Shown piece after piece: positions 6,777 to 11,351 of a stretch of DNA of 30,544 nucleotides (the first letter of the stretch is position 1; each line of letters begins with the position of its first letter). Location of the stretch: NCBI GenBank assembly GCA_021734045.1, contig JAIPJR010000032.1, positions 1 through 30,544 of the forward strand, read 5' to 3'. The notes beneath the pieces are model-generated. The model had not been told where the DNA came from, searched no databases, and saw nothing but the letters and a program-made list of their open reading frames with translations. Position numbers and translations under genes: made by a program. This DNA comes from Fidelibacterota bacterium (GTDB taxonomy: Bacteria; Fidelibacterota; UBA8477).

Positions 6777-7538
6777 TCAAGGTAATTCCCTTTGTGGCAA
6801 GGACTTAACCGGCCATTGCTTAAGTAACAGATTCGCTCCGTCATAATAACCGAAGGAAAAATGGTCCAACCAGTCTCCGATGGTGAGAAAGGCCTTCTCC
6901 CCGATGTGCTCAATTCTCGGCCAATGGACATGCCCGGTGACAAAGAAATCAGCCCCTTCTGCGAAGATTTGCTGCGCATACACTATATTTTCCTGCACCC
7001 GGTTCTCTAATACAGCCTCCGTTTCAGCATTCAGCGTACGGGATTGATAGGAAACAAACTTTGCCAACCAATGCCCCACATCCGGATGCAACCAGCGAAA
7101 GGCAGCGATGAGAACAGGATGACGCAGAAATCTACGGAGCAGCCGGTACCCCCGATCATCTTTCGCCAGACCGTCACCATGGATCAAATGCCAGCGCTTC
7201 CCGCCAAAATCCAGCATCACCGGTCTCAGGTGAACCTGAATGCCTAAGTCGGTGGTAAGAAATTTTCCCAGCCAATAATCATGGTTCCCGGCTACATAAT
7301 GAATCGTCACACCGTGCTTGCGCAATTCAGCCAACTTCATAAAGACATCGAAATAGCCGGCGGTAATGACATGACGATATTCAAAATAGAAATCGAACCA
7401 GTCACCCACGATAAACAAGGTGGCCTGTTCAGCTTTAATCTGGTCTAATAACCCGAAAAGCTCCTGCCGGCGCAGAGCTTCCGTTTCATCCACATGGAAT
7501 TTTAAATGGACATCGGAAAGAAAATAGGCGGTTTCCAT
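6777..7538 (-). CDS. lpxH: UDP-2,3-diacylglucosamine hydrolase-type metallophosphoesterase
   Basis: A 253-residue calcineurin-like metallophosphoesterase. All five metal-binding blocks are visible: SDVHL (D9, H11), GDWFDFY (D46), GNHDYW (N85, H86, D87), HGDG (H120) and TGHVHWPR (H203, H205). The GDWFDFYFEY segment and the HGDGLAKDDRGYRLLRRFLR region are typical of LpxH and its relatives, which hydrolyse UDP-2,3-diacylglucosamine to lipid X at the cytoplasmic face in lipid A synthesis. This is the form seen in FCB bacteria, where LpxH-like proteins are of this length. It is the first gene of a three-gene minus-strand unit. No strong ribosome site precedes the ATG, but the SDVHL block starts at the usual distance, so the start is likely right. 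LpxG or another phosphoesterase is a less likely alternative. Confidence 0.82.
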   Translation of the reverse strand: METAYFLSDVHLKFHVDETEALRRQELFGLLDQIKAEQATLFIVGDWFDFYFEYRHVITAGYFDVFMKLAELRKHGVTIHYVAGNHDYWLGKFLTTDLGIQVHLRPVMLDFGGKRWHLIHGDGLAKDDRGYRLLRRFLRHPVLIAAFRWLHPDVGHWLAKFVSYQSRTLNAETEAVLENRVQENIVYAQQIFAEGADFFVTGHVHWPRIEHIGEKAFLTIGDWLDHFSFGYYDGANLLLKQWPVKSLPQRELP

Positions 7539-7633
7539 AAGCGGATTAAACTAACTGCATACGCTTACCGGCGCCATGCCAAAATGGTTGGTTTCAGGGC
7601 GCGCTTCTCAGTGCATTTCTGCTTTTAATTCGG

Positions 7634-7662
7634 TTGACAACTCATGGATGAATGGTTAAAAT
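7634..7662 (+). promoter_or_regulatory. Sigma-70-type promoter of the BMC shell gene
   Basis: TTGACA at 7634-7639 is a perfect -35 box, followed after exactly 17 bases by TAAAAT at 7657-7662, a five-of-six match to the -10 consensus. Transcription would start near 7669, giving a leader of about 45 bases before the GTG start of the shell protein. Confidence 0.72.
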
Positions 7663-7714
7663 CACCTTCACAATGATGGTATTAGGATAAAATTCGAAGG
7701 ACTGGAGGAACGAA

Positions 7715-8038
7715 GTGGCTACGTCATTAGATGCGCTGGGAATGGTAGAAACCCGTGGATTGGTCGGGTCGATTGAAGCAGCTGATGCCATGGTTAAAGC
7801 TGCCAATGTTCGCCTTATTGGTAAAGAACATGTTGGAGGTGGTTTTGTCACGGTGATGGTACGTGGTGATGTAGGTGCTGTAAAAGCTGCAACCGATGCT
7901 GGTGCTGCCGCTGCCGAGAAGGTTGGCGAATTGGTTTCGGTGCATGTGATTCCCCGGCCCCATACCGAAGTGGAGACCATTTTACCTGGTGGTGGAGGCG
8001 GTTCCGGCTCAAAAACCGCAGCCAAACCTGTAAAATAA
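7715..8038 (+). CDS. Bacterial microcompartment hexameric shell protein (BMC-H, PduA/EutM type)
   Basis: A 107-residue single-BMC-domain protein that should form flat hexamers tiling a microcompartment facet. Residues 6-91 align by eye with PduA/EutM/Ccm[21 protein letters not shown], then [20 protein letters not shown] and [12 protein letters not shown]. The pore loop that is typically G-S-G in PduA/EutM is here GGGF (residues 41-44), after KEHV. The C terminus adds a glycine-rich tail (residues 92-99) and a lysine/alanine end, longer than in minimal CcmK-like proteins. The GTG start is supported by GGAGG at 7704-7708. The gene has its own promoter and terminator and no neighbouring vertex protein, signature enzyme or regulator. 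It may complement a compartment operon elsewhere in the genome. Confidence 0.95.
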
Positions 8039-8063
8039 TTTCAACCAAAGAAATTATGCATTC

Positions 8064-8094
8064 ACAGCCCCTGTCATCAGGGGCTGTTTATTTT
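8064..8094 (+). terminator. Rho-independent terminator of the BMC gene
   Basis: ACAGCCCCTG (8064-8073) and CAGGGGCTGT (8078-8087) form a perfect 10-bp stem with a TCAT loop, followed by TTATTTT. It lies 26 bases after the shell-protein stop codon. Confidence 0.9.
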
Positions 8095-8180
8095 ACCAGA
8101 CACAGCGAAACCGGGAACAAATTCGCCGGTTATTCGATTTCAAATGCGGTCAGGCCATGCGGGGGTATAGAGTCAATAAA

Positions 8181-8209
8181 TTGACAATCAAGAGGCCCGG
8201 CGTTATTTT
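8181..8209 (+). promoter_or_regulatory. Candidate sigma-70 promoter for the envelope gene run
   Basis: TTGACA at 8181-8186, a perfect -35 box, is followed after 17 bases by TATTTT at 8204-8209, a four-of-six -10 match. It lies between the BMC terminator and the start at 8253, giving a leader of about 35 bases. It is likely the main promoter for the plus-strand run that begins there. Confidence 0.55.
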
Positions 8210-8252: not shown

Positions 8253-11200
8253 ATGAATAAATTCAAATCAGTCCTTACCTTTCTGACCCTGATACTGGTG
8301 TTTGCAGGACATGCCCATGGTCAATTCGGCAAAAATAAGATCCAGTATAAAGAGATGGATTGGTCATTTATCCAGACTGAGCATTTTGATGTGTATTTCT
8401 ACAAAGGCGGTAAAAATGTGGCCTCATTTGCCGGTGCCGTGAGCGAACGGGCGTACAGCACCATCGCCTACCAGTTGAACTGGGACCTGACCAAGCGGAT
8501 TTCCATTATTATTTACAATTCCCACAATGACTTTCAACAGACCAATGTAACACTTGAATACCTTTATGAAGGGATTGGTGGATTCACTGAACTGTTCAAA
8601 AACCGAGTGGTCATACCCTTCGAAGGGAGTTATGAGCAATTTCGCCACGTGCTGCATCATGAGTTAACCCACGCGGTTTTAAATGACATGCTCTACGGCG
8701 GGAATGTCCAATCGCTGGTGAGTGGACGCGTGCGGGTGGAAATGCCCCTTTGGCTCAGTGAAGGTTATGCGGAATACTCCTCTCTGGACTGGGACTCCAA
8801 CACCGACATGATTATTCGGGATGCCGCTATTAACGGCCAACTGCCGCCTATCCGAGCACTGGATTATTACATGGCCTACAAAGGCGGCCAGAGTGTCCTG
8901 CGATTCATTGGTGAAACCTACGGTGTCCAGCGCATTGGCGAAATTTTCCATACCCTCAAACGCCAAAAAACCATTGATAAGACCATGAAACACACCCTGG
9001 GTGTTGACTTGAAGGGGCTGACGGAAAAATGGCATTTTCAGATTCGGAAGGAGTACTGGCCAGACATTGAAGGACGCTCAATCCTGAAAGACATCGCCCG
9101 CCCCATGACCGACCATGTGGAATTGGAAAACTATTTCAATGTGAGTCCCGCCATTTCACCCGATGGCGGCCGAATCGCCTTTCTCTCGGACCGGAGTGGC
9201 TACGCAGATATTTATCTCATCTCATCGGAAGATGGTCGCGAGGTAACCCGGATTGTCTCCGGTCAACGCACACCTGACCTGGAAGAGTTGAAATGGCTCA
9301 GTCCCGGCATTAGCTGGTCACCGGACAGTCGCAAGCTGGTTTTCGCCAGCAAAGCCGGTGATAATGACGCCCTGGTCATTTACGATACTCAGACGGATAA
9401 AAAGAAAATTATCAAATCCAATCTTGATGGTATTTTCACTGCGGCCTGGTCACCAACATCAGATAAAATCGCCTTCAGCGGATTGTACAAAGGGGCGATT
9501 GACCTATATATCTATGATTTAAACACCAAGGAACTGCGTCAGCTCACATCCGACTTTTATCGCGATAATGACCCGGCCTGGTCTCCGGATGGTAAAACCC
9601 TGGCCTTTGTCTCCGATCGTAACGATCATCTGAACCCCACTGAAGAGCGCCCGGATGAGGTTAGCACGAATGCACGCTTGCTTGAACATCCCTATCAGCA
9701 TACAGATATTTTCACCATCGATGTGGAGACCCGCGCGATTGTCCGCATCACCAATACGCCCCGGGATGAAGATTCACCGGAATTTGCTTCTACCGCACCA
9801 TTTCTCGCCTATACCTCCGACCGCTCCGGGATCTGGAATATCTATCTCTACAACCTGGAAACCGGCGAAGAGTACCCCATCACCAATGTGCTCACCGGCG
9901 TGTTTCAACTGAGCTGGGGGGATGACGATTCCCGGTTGGTGTTCGCCGGATACGAACAGGGTGGCTGGGACATTTATGAAATCAGCAATCCCCTCGATCT
10001 CTCGGCACTTCCGGAGCCACCACGATCCAATTTCCTGAAGCGAGAGGATTTGCAGATTGATGTGACCTACTCCGACCTGCCCAAGCTGGAACAACACAGA
10101 ATTAACAGTGATCCCTACAGCCGCTACATTTTCAGCCCTCAGTTTGAATCCAAATTGCAGCCGACCGATACCACACGGATTGATTCTATCCTGGGAAAAA
10201 ATCTCTCCTACCAGGACAGTACCGGTACCTATGTTGTGCATCCCTATAAAACGCGATTTACCATTGACCTGGTGGATGCACGTGCCGGTTACGATAATTT
10301 TTTCGGTTTTCAGGGAAATGCACTTATGGTCTTCTCTGATATACTGGGAAATCATCGCATTCAATTTGGATTCGAGCTGTATAAAAACCTGTCCAACTCA
10401 GATCTACTTCTGGGCTACGACTACCTGGCCAAACGCAATAACTACCACCTTCTGGCTTTCCATTTTCCCGATGACTATTGGTGGACCTGGCCCAGCCTGC
10501 GGGTGCGCAACTATGGTATCTCCGCCGGTATTTCCCATCCCTTTTCAAAATTCCAGCGCATTGAAATGGGGCTTACCTGGTTCAATATTAATCAGGAATA
10601 CTACATCTACGACGATTATGGTCAGTACCTGCCACTATCCGACTCCACCATTTCAACAGTACTGCCACAGTTTAGTTGGATATTTGATAATGTCCTGTAT
10701 GGTTATTACTACCCCATCGACGGTTGGCGCATCAATCTTGGTGCGCTCTTCTCACCGAATTTTATCACATCCGACCGGGAATTCGCCACCGTCTCCATGG
10801 ACGCACGCCGCTATTTTAAGATTGGGAATGACTACTCCTTCGCGTTTCGCTTGAGCGGGGCCAGTAGTCACGGTGCACACCCTCAAAATTTTTATGTGGG
10901 TGGTGTTGCTAACTGGCTGAATGGTGCTTACGCTTACCGCAATATTCCCAACGATTACGATTATACCGACTCCTATTTTTCCCGCTGGATATTCCCGGTT
11001 CGCGGTGCCGATTATTTTCAACTCTGGGGTCAGCATTACGCGCTATTCAACGCAGAATTCCGCTTCCCATTTATCCAATATCTCATTTTTAAATGGCCGC
11101 TACCCATCGGATTCAATGATGTGCGTGGCCTGGTTTACCTGGATTACGCCAAAACCTGGCAGAATAGTCCGTCTGATGGTAAGGTCCACGATAAATTATT

Positions 11201-11351
11201 CTCAGGTGCAAATGATTTCCTAAGTTCAGGTGTTGGGATGCGAATTAACCTGGGCTATTTTATCCTGCGTTATGATTTGGCGTATGATTTATCCAATGCC
11301 ACGCTCTTCTCAAAACCCCAACACATTTTCTCCCTGGGGATAGATTTCTGA
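8253..11351 (+). CDS. Outer-membrane protein fusing a gluzincin peptidase domain, a TolB-like propeller and a BamA-like barrel
   Basis: A 1032-residue protein with a signal peptide ending HAHGQ (residues 1-24). Residues 30-275 are a peptidase-MA-like gluzincin domain: HELTH at 136-140 gives the zinc histidines and general base, and WLSEGYAEY carries the third ligand candidate, E170. Residues 290-590 are WD40-like/PD40 propeller blades as in TolB (SPDGGRIAFLSDRSG, SWSPDSRKLVFAS, AWSPDGKTLAFVSDR, FLAYTSDRSGIWNIYLY). Residues 640-1032 are rich in alternating aromatic strands and end in LGIDF, as in BamA/Omp85-type surface-antigen barrels. Similar architectures are known in FCB-group genomes; the substrate is not known. 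It starts a co-directional run and lies seven bases before mlaE, which suggests an outer-membrane maintenance role. Confidence 0.85.
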   Translation: MNKFKSVLTFLTLILVFAGHAHGQFGKNKIQYKEMDWSFIQTEHFDVYFYKGGKNVASFAGAVSERAYSTIAYQLNWDLTKRISIIIYNSHNDFQQTNVTLEYLYEGIGGFTELFKNRVVIPFEGSYEQFRHVLHHELTHAVLNDMLYGGNVQSLVSGRVRVEMPLWLSEGYAEYSSLDWDSNTDMIIRDAAINGQLPPIRALDYYMAYKGGQSVLRFIGETYGVQRIGEIFHTLKRQKTIDKTMKHTLGVDLKGLTEKWHFQIRKEYWPDIEGRSILKDIARPMTDHVELENYFNVSPAISPDGGRIAFLSDRSGYADIYLISSEDGREVTRIVSGQRTPDLEELKWLSPGISWSPDSRKLVFASKAGDNDALVIYDTQTDKKKIIKSNLDGIFTAAWSPTSDKIAFSGLYKGAIDLYIYDLNTKELRQLTSDFYRDNDPAWSPDGKTLAFVSDRNDHLNPTEERPDEVSTNARLLEHPYQHTDIFTIDVETRAIVRITNTPRDEDSPEFASTAPFLAYTSDRSGIWNIYLYNLETGEEYPITNVLTGVFQLSWGDDDSRLVFAGYEQGGWDIYEISNPLDLSALPEPPRSNFLKREDLQIDVTYSDLPKLEQHRINSDPYSRYIFSPQFESKLQPTDTTRIDSILGKNLSYQDSTGTYVVHPYKTRFTIDLVDARAGYDNFFGFQGNALMVFSDILGNHRIQFGFELYKNLSNSDLLLGYDYLAKRNNYHLLAFHFPDDYWWTWPSLRVRNYGISAGISHPFSKFQRIEMGLTWFNINQEYYIYDDYGQYLPLSDSTISTVLPQFSWIFDNVLYGYYYPIDGWRINLGALFSPNFITSDREFATVSMDARRYFKIGNDYSFAFRLSGASSHGAHPQNFYVGGVANWLNGAYAYRNIPNDYDYTDSYFSRWIFPVRGADYFQLWGQHYALFNAEFRFPFIQYLIFKWPLPIGFNDVRGLVYLDYAKTWQNSPSDGKVHDKLFSGANDFLSSGVGMRINLGYFILRYDLAYDLSNATLFSKPQHIFSLGIDF

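What the first reader, a model, noticed from the sequence alone, without database searches (positions are those of the whole stretch)
7634..8094. Solitary microcompartment shell gene as a self-contained expression unit
A clear BMC-H shell protein sits alone between lpxH and an outer-membrane gene, with no vertex protein, trimeric shell protein, signature enzyme or regulator within the window. Yet it has a perfect -35 with a near-consensus -10 at 17 bases, a strong ribosome site, and a textbook terminator. This independence suggests constant, possibly high expression of one facet protein. Either it supplies a main BMC operon elsewhere (a satellite locus), or the shell protein is used for something other than a classical compartment, such as a surface array or a scaffold. 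The glycine-rich tail and GGGF pore loop differ from PduA and EutM and may set pore selectivity.
Basis: partly seen in the sequence, partly recalled or inferred. Interest (0 to 1): 0.72.

Follow-up and report, generated by a model that had tools for sequence, protein, structure and literature searches.

The report
Lone shell gene of scattered organelle
The lone shell gene is a normal facet protein of a bacterial protein organelle whose genes are scattered over the chromosome, and unlinked enzymes with docking tails suggest that the organelle digests the sugar of DNA building blocks, a job not yet assigned to this scattered type.

Summary
A canonical BMC-H gene (7715-8038) stands alone between lpxH and an outer-membrane gene, with its own promoter and terminator, conserved in the genus and in part in a second family. 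It is not solitary in function. The same genome holds a PduT-like BMC-T next to a PduS-like gene, and a BMC-P, each on another contig. No locus joins BMC-H and BMC-P, so there is no main operon. This is the layout that Sutter et al. 2021 named FRAG, with function unknown.

New here is the probable cargo. Unlinked in this genome lie an acetylating acetaldehyde dehydrogenase with a C-terminal encapsulation-peptide-like helix and a deoxyribose-phosphate aldolase with an N-terminal one. In 60 relatives, the dehydrogenase family (E<=1e-20) occurs in exactly the 17 genomes with BMC domains. Its close form recurs in 12 of 15 genomes of other phyla with dispersed BMC-H, where it often adjoins BMC-H. 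The aldolase is operonic with BMC-P in a Gemmatimonadetes genome, and all these parts form one operon in an Anaerolineae genome. Best reading: the facet protein of a genome-scattered deoxyribose (DNA-sugar) metabolosome. The surface-array and special-pore ideas are not supported. All evidence is sequence-based; nothing was tested at the bench.

The parts
7715..8038 (+). BMC-H shell protein gene (PF00936, EutM/PduA-like), 107 aa, GTG start
   Evidence: dN/dS 0.02-0.05 to three relatives
7634..7662 (+). promoter: -35 TTGACA, 17-base spacer, -10 TAAAAT
   Evidence: conserved in two congeners while flanks diverge
7623..7640 (+). conserved block TTTTAATTCGGTTGACAA covering the -35 box and the bases upstream of it; exact copies of its core only at this locus in the three genomes searched
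7704..7709 (+). ribosome binding site GGAGGA, 5 bases before GTG
   Evidence: sequence; conserved in G001 and G002
8064..8095 (+). intrinsic terminator (10-pair stem plus T-rich tail)
   Evidence: hairpin kept in four genomes with paired changes
6777..7538 (-). lpxH-like phosphoesterase, divergent neighbour; the same divergent lpxH-like/BMC-H arrangement occurs in two Gemmatimonadetes (L058, L039)
8253..11351 (+). downstream peptidase-MA/WD40-like/Omp85 gene with its own promoter-like sequence (8181-8209); transcribed separately from BMC-H (inferred)

Best explanation
The gene encodes the main facet hexamer of a bacterial microcompartment whose genes are scattered over the chromosome (FRAG layout). 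Each piece is expressed from its own locus: BMC-H (this window), a PduT-like BMC-T with a PduS/RnfC-like electron carrier, and BMC-P vertex proteins. The likely cargo is encoded elsewhere: deoxyribose-phosphate aldolase (DeoC) with an N-terminal docking helix, and acetylating acetaldehyde dehydrogenase with a C-terminal docking helix. Inferred reaction: deoxyribose-5-phosphate, made from deoxynucleosides (a pyrimidine-nucleoside phosphorylase is encoded on the BMC-P contig), enters the shell; [quoted passage not shown] the dehydrogenase turns the acetaldehyde into acetyl-CoA before it escapes; PduS/BMC-T may pass the electrons out. Shown by sequence: the genes, their families, conservation, co-occurrence, and linkage in other taxa. 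Inferred: assembly, docking, substrate flow, electron transfer.
For: Own genome: BMC-T, BMC-P, PduS-like, acetaldehyde dehydrogenase TIGR02518 540 bits, below the curated cut-off of 620, DeoC TIGR00126 282 bits. The AldDH C-terminal amphipathic helix is conserved in two families of the phylum and in Ignavibacteria, Chlorobiales and Gemmatimonadetes; AlphaFold gives helix 505-516 after a low-confidence stretch. The DeoC N-terminal extension has an isolated helix 32-50 between low-confidence linkers; it is present in BMC-holding genomes and absent or short in BMC-less relatives. Co-occurrence: the AldDH family at E<=1e-20 is in exactly the 17 of 60 relatives with PF00936 over the cut-off; the close form (E<1e-200) is in the 4 dispersed ones, the other 13 hits being 29-34% identical AldDHs, operonic where read. 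In other phyla it is in 12 of 15 genomes with non-operonic BMC-H. Linkage elsewhere: BMC-H beside AldDH in L112, L087, L111, L039; nucleoside phosphorylase-DeoC-BMC-P-RpiB-BMC-P in Gemmatimonadetes L270; the full set in one operon in Anaerolineae L074. Position: deoC sits just upstream of a rumA-like gene, and in relatives with an SPU operon that operon sits at the same place.
Against: No experiment. In this genome cargo and shell genes are unlinked, so the pairing rests on helices, co-occurrence and linkage in other phyla. Docking helices are short, and the windows tested for amphipathicity were picked by eye; for DeoC the signal in single sequences is weak outside the window's own group (median shuffle p 0.06). 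Genomes are related, so co-occurrence counts are not independent. Only one BMC-P was found in this assembly (92% complete), where FRAG has a triplet; congener G002 has four and G003 three. No PduL-type phosphotransacylase was found. Phosphopentomutase and RpiB were not sought in this genome. The phosphorylase is near BMC-P only here, not in congener G001.
Confidence: 0.7

Rival explanations
1. The same scattered microcompartment, but for another aldehyde (for example from ethanolamine, lactaldehyde or amino acids); DeoC is only a housekeeping enzyme with an unrelated N-terminal extension.
For: The AldDH family is close to acetaldehyde dehydrogenases that also serve ethanolamine BMCs; the BMC-H just passes the EutM model (133.2 bits, cut-off 133).
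Against: The extension is conserved in BMC-holding genomes and lacking in BMC-less relatives; orthologous DeoC is in shell operons in L270 and L074. Ethanolamine lyase genes were not sought.
Confidence: 0.2
2. The BMC-H is a leftover or builds a lone scaffold or array, with no closed compartment in this organism.
For: Only one BMC-P and one BMC-T were found, none near BMC-H.
Against: Strong purifying selection on BMC-H (dN/dS 0.02-0.05) and on BMC-T, AldDH and DeoC where dS could be estimated; promoter and terminator conserved; all three shell classes present; the rdgB locus that carries the BMC-P pair in G002 and G003 is missing from this assembly, which points to a gap.
Confidence: 0.07
3. 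A true satellite of an intact main BMC operon that is simply not assembled in this draft genome.
For: 119 contigs, 92% complete; BMC-T lies near a contig end.
Against: G002 (89%) and G003 (95%) also show only scattered loci, and in both the PduS/BMC-T locus is complete without further BMC genes around it.
Confidence: 0.06

Closest known systems
FRAG-type BMCs (Sutter et al. 2021, PMC8217296)
   Same: Shell genes at several chromosomal places, AldDH present, BMC-P triplet in relatives G002/G003, taxa such as Ignavibacteriae and Gemmatimonadetes share the parts.
   Different: Only one BMC-P in this assembly; FRAG shell subtypes (HMM colours) were not tested; a cargo assignment is proposed here that the catalog leaves open.
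SPU (sugar phosphate utilization) BMCs (PMC4207490, PMC8217296)
   Same: DeoC plus acetaldehyde-consuming AldDH plus all three shell classes; a compact operon of homologous genes exists in Anaerolineae L074.
   Different: Here the genes are unlinked; SPU loci of the same order have an RpiB-DeoC fusion and a BMC-H only 52-55% identical to the window's.
HO BMCs (Haliangium ochraceum type, PMC8217296)
   Same: There too an unlinked pfam01791 aldolase with an N-terminal docking-like extension was noted by Sutter et al.
   Different: HO has a main locus with the shell genes together; here even the shell is split.
Satellite loci such as CcmK3/K4 (PMC8217296)
   Same: Shell gene away from other BMC genes with its own promoter.
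   Different: A satellite needs a main locus; none was found here.

Membership tests
BMC-H shell proteins (PF00936) | one PF00936 domain over the curated cut-off | tested here: met
   101 bits, cut-off 24.5
FRAG BMC | shell genes spread over several genomic places without a main locus | tested here: met
   three places here; five contigs in G002, four in G003
FRAG BMC | BMC-P triplet | tested here: inconclusive
   one in G000, four in G002, three in G003; the rdgB/BMC-P-pair locus is missing from the G000 assembly
FRAG BMC | pfam00171 AldDH | tested here: met
   G000:C110:15810-17363
FRAG BMC | shell protein HMM subtypes of the catalog | not tested
   catalog HMMs not available
SPU BMC | DeoC-type aldolase (pfam01791) | tested here: met
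   G000:C97, unlinked to shell genes
SPU BMC | RpiB (pfam02502) | not tested
   not searched in G000
SPU BMC | shell and enzyme genes in one locus | tested here: not met
Satellite locus (Axen et al. [quoted passage not shown]
   no locus with both PF00936 and PF03319 in G000; draft genome
[quoted passage not shown]
   for single DeoC sequences the amphipathicity is weak outside the window's group
Encapsulation peptide on AldDH and DeoC | directs cargo into the shell | not testable with these tools
   needs a bench assay

The most novel reading that the evidence does not exclude
FRAG microcompartments in general, or at least those of FCB-type phyla, are deoxynucleoside (DNA-sugar) organelles assembled from five or more separately expressed loci. 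The cargo can be recognised genome-wide by docking helices on an unlinked DeoC and an unlinked acetaldehyde dehydrogenase, which would give a job to a BMC class of unknown function.
Probability: 0.5. Interest if true: 0.65.

Novelty: new member of a known kind. Interest (0 to 1): 0.5.

Why it matters
Scattered (FRAG) microcompartments were described in 2021 as enigmatic because gene neighbourhoods, the usual key to BMC function, are missing. Searching whole genomes for unlinked enzymes with conserved docking helices gives a concrete substrate to test and a way to read other dispersed organelles. It also suggests that a BMC can be encoded without any operon and be kept that way over family-level divergence.

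Tried and rejected
PduL-type phosphotransacylase (PF06130): none in five genomes. A shared promoter motif among the scattered genes: the block TTTAATTCGGTTGACA recurs exactly only at the BMC-H locus. Overlap of the ends of the window contig and the BMC-P contig: no sequence overlap, although gene order in G001 and G002 places them side by side, which would put BMC-P about 12 kb from BMC-H. Phosphorylase-BMC-P linkage as strong evidence: dropped, because in G001 the phosphorylase is on a different contig from BMC-P. ACT-domain protein next to BMC-P as a third cargo: its N-terminal helix looks docking-like by eye but is not unusual by moment (p 0.34). Lone scaffold or surface array: rejected as the main reading. 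The phylum is not named by the tools; probably Marinimicrobia, because SPU loci of same-phylum genomes carry the RpiB-DeoC fusion that PMC4207490 reports for that phylum (inference).

Full report
What is there. The ORF 7715-8038 is a canonical BMC-H protein: PF00936 at 101 bits, 76 of 86 aligned residues identical to the PduA of PDB 7mmx and 75 of 91 to 4axj. Its promoter, ribosome site and terminator are present as described. Consensus counts alone are near chance, but the -35 block, the -10 and the 5'UTR are conserved between the window genome and two congeners while the flanking intergenic DNA is not, and a terminator hairpin persists in four genomes with paired changes. The gene after it has its own promoter-like sequence, so BMC-H is most likely a one-gene unit. 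It is under strong purifying selection (dN/dS 0.02-0.05).

The isolated place is old. The same divergent lpxH/BMC-H arrangement is in both congeners (G001, G002) and in G003 of another family, and an lpxH-like phosphoesterase lies divergently beside BMC-H in two Gemmatimonadetes contigs (L058, L039). In L039 the BMC-H gene is followed by a second BMC gene and by the aldehyde dehydrogenase discussed below.

The rest of the shell. The genome (2.54 Mb, 119 contigs, 92% complete) has one BMC-T on C59, beside a PduS/RnfC-like gene cut by the contig end, and one BMC-P on C23. The BMC-T is PduT-like: TIGR02526 at 143 bits, below its cut-off of 250, with a cysteine in the motif CPGKY. G002 has four BMC-P genes on three contigs and G003 three on two. 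In G002 and G003 a BMC-P pair lies next to rdgB; neither rdgB nor that pair is found in G000 or G001, which suggests a gap in these drafts. No genome of this group has BMC-H and BMC-P in one locus. Sutter et al. (PMC8217296) call such systems FRAG: shell genes in up to six places, a BMC-P triplet, function unknown, in Ignavibacteriae and related phyla, Gemmatimonadetes and others.

Cargo candidates. A search with a BMC-type AldDH found a homologue at G000:C110:15810-17363 and in G001-G003. It is an acetylating acetaldehyde dehydrogenase by family (TIGR02518, 540 bits, below the curated cut-off of 620) and ends in a linker and the helix GLTDEEVEKIIRDLNS. The helix is conserved as a pattern in G001-G003, in Ignavibacteria, Chlorobiales and Gemmatimonadetes and is more amphipathic than shuffles of itself in all twelve sequences tested (p 0.0004-0.03; windows chosen by eye). 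AlphaFold places a helix at 505-516 after a low-confidence stretch. DeoC at G000:C97:3536-4489 (TIGR00126, 282 bits) carries about 105 extra residues before its core, with an isolated helix at 32-50 between low-confidence linkers. Most genomes with BMC genes have such an extension; BMC-less relatives start close to the core, except G028 with a 60-residue extension. The features match the description of encapsulation peptides in PMC12339742. Sutter et al. noted an EP-like extension on unlinked aldolases for the HO type, not for FRAG in the passages read. No paper found in the library makes the link for FRAG; subscription journals and preprints are not covered.

Co-occurrence. Among 60 relatives the AldDH query at E<=1e-20 hits exactly the 17 genomes that have PF00936 over the cut-off. 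Thirteen of these hits are 29-34% identical AldDHs, which lie in the SPU operons in the genomes whose loci were read, so their co-occurrence is trivial. The informative part is that the close form (E<1e-200) is in all four dispersed genomes and no AldDH of this kind is in the 43 others. In other phyla the close form (43-52% identity) is in 12 of 15 genomes chosen for a BMC-H without BMC-P within 10 kb. The three exceptions (two Poribacteria, one Sumerlaeota) have a more distant AldDH; in the Poribacteria it has an N-terminal docking-like helix, and in one of them it adjoins BMC-H. These genomes are not independent samples.

Linkage in other taxa. BMC-H adjoins the AldDH in Acidobacteria L112, Pyrinomonadaceae L087, Poribacteria L111 (the distant form) and Gemmatimonadetes L039. 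Gemmatimonadetes L270 has nucleoside phosphorylase-DeoC-BMC-P-RpiB-BMC-P. Anaerolineae L074 has DeoC with an N-terminal helix, BMC-P, AldDH with a C-terminal helix, BMC-H, BMC-T and two BMC-P in one operon. In G000-G003 deoC lies just before a rumA-like gene; in relatives of the same order that have an SPU operon, the operon sits at exactly that place, and in BMC-less relatives a plain deoC does.

Reading. The window's BMC-H is most likely the facet protein of a dispersed metabolosome that splits deoxyribose-5-phosphate and captures the acetaldehyde. Confidence that it is a shell component of a scattered BMC: about 0.9. That the cargo is DeoC plus AldDH: about 0.65-0.7. Electron transfer by PduS and BMC-T is inferred by analogy with PduS/PduT. 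The fate of acetyl-CoA is open: no PduL was found. RpiB, phosphopentomutase and acetate/butyrate kinase were not searched for in this genome.

The pore motif is ordinary and the glycine tail is not conserved. A satellite role is right in spirit, but there is no main locus. A surface array is not needed to explain anything seen.

Noticed in passing
G000:C97 (L181 3536-5988); L121, L122, L125, L126, L128: The site just upstream of a rumA-like methyltransferase gene holds plain deoC, docking-helix deoC, or a whole SPU microcompartment operon in different members of one order; G012 keeps a lone BMC-P there. It looks like a replacement hot spot.
   Followed up: partly
window 6777-7538 and L058 9235-9897, L039 3-722: An lpxH-like phosphoesterase lies divergently next to BMC-H in the window's phylum and in Gemmatimonadetes; reason unknown.
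   Followed up: partly
L116 8023-8367 and 9846-10532: Congener G001 has a second, N-terminally truncated BMC-T copy 1.5 kb from the intact one.
   Followed up: no
L006 3397-3825: Next to the BMC-P gene is a small ACT-domain protein conserved in the genus; its role in or beside a microcompartment is unknown.
   Followed up: partly
L258, L259, L262-L264: In Acidobacteria the AldDH carries, in place of the docking helix, a C-terminal segment with a conserved motif (VCEDDVRxA...TIITPAARDLG) like one seen at the N-terminus of RpiB in L270.
   Followed up: no
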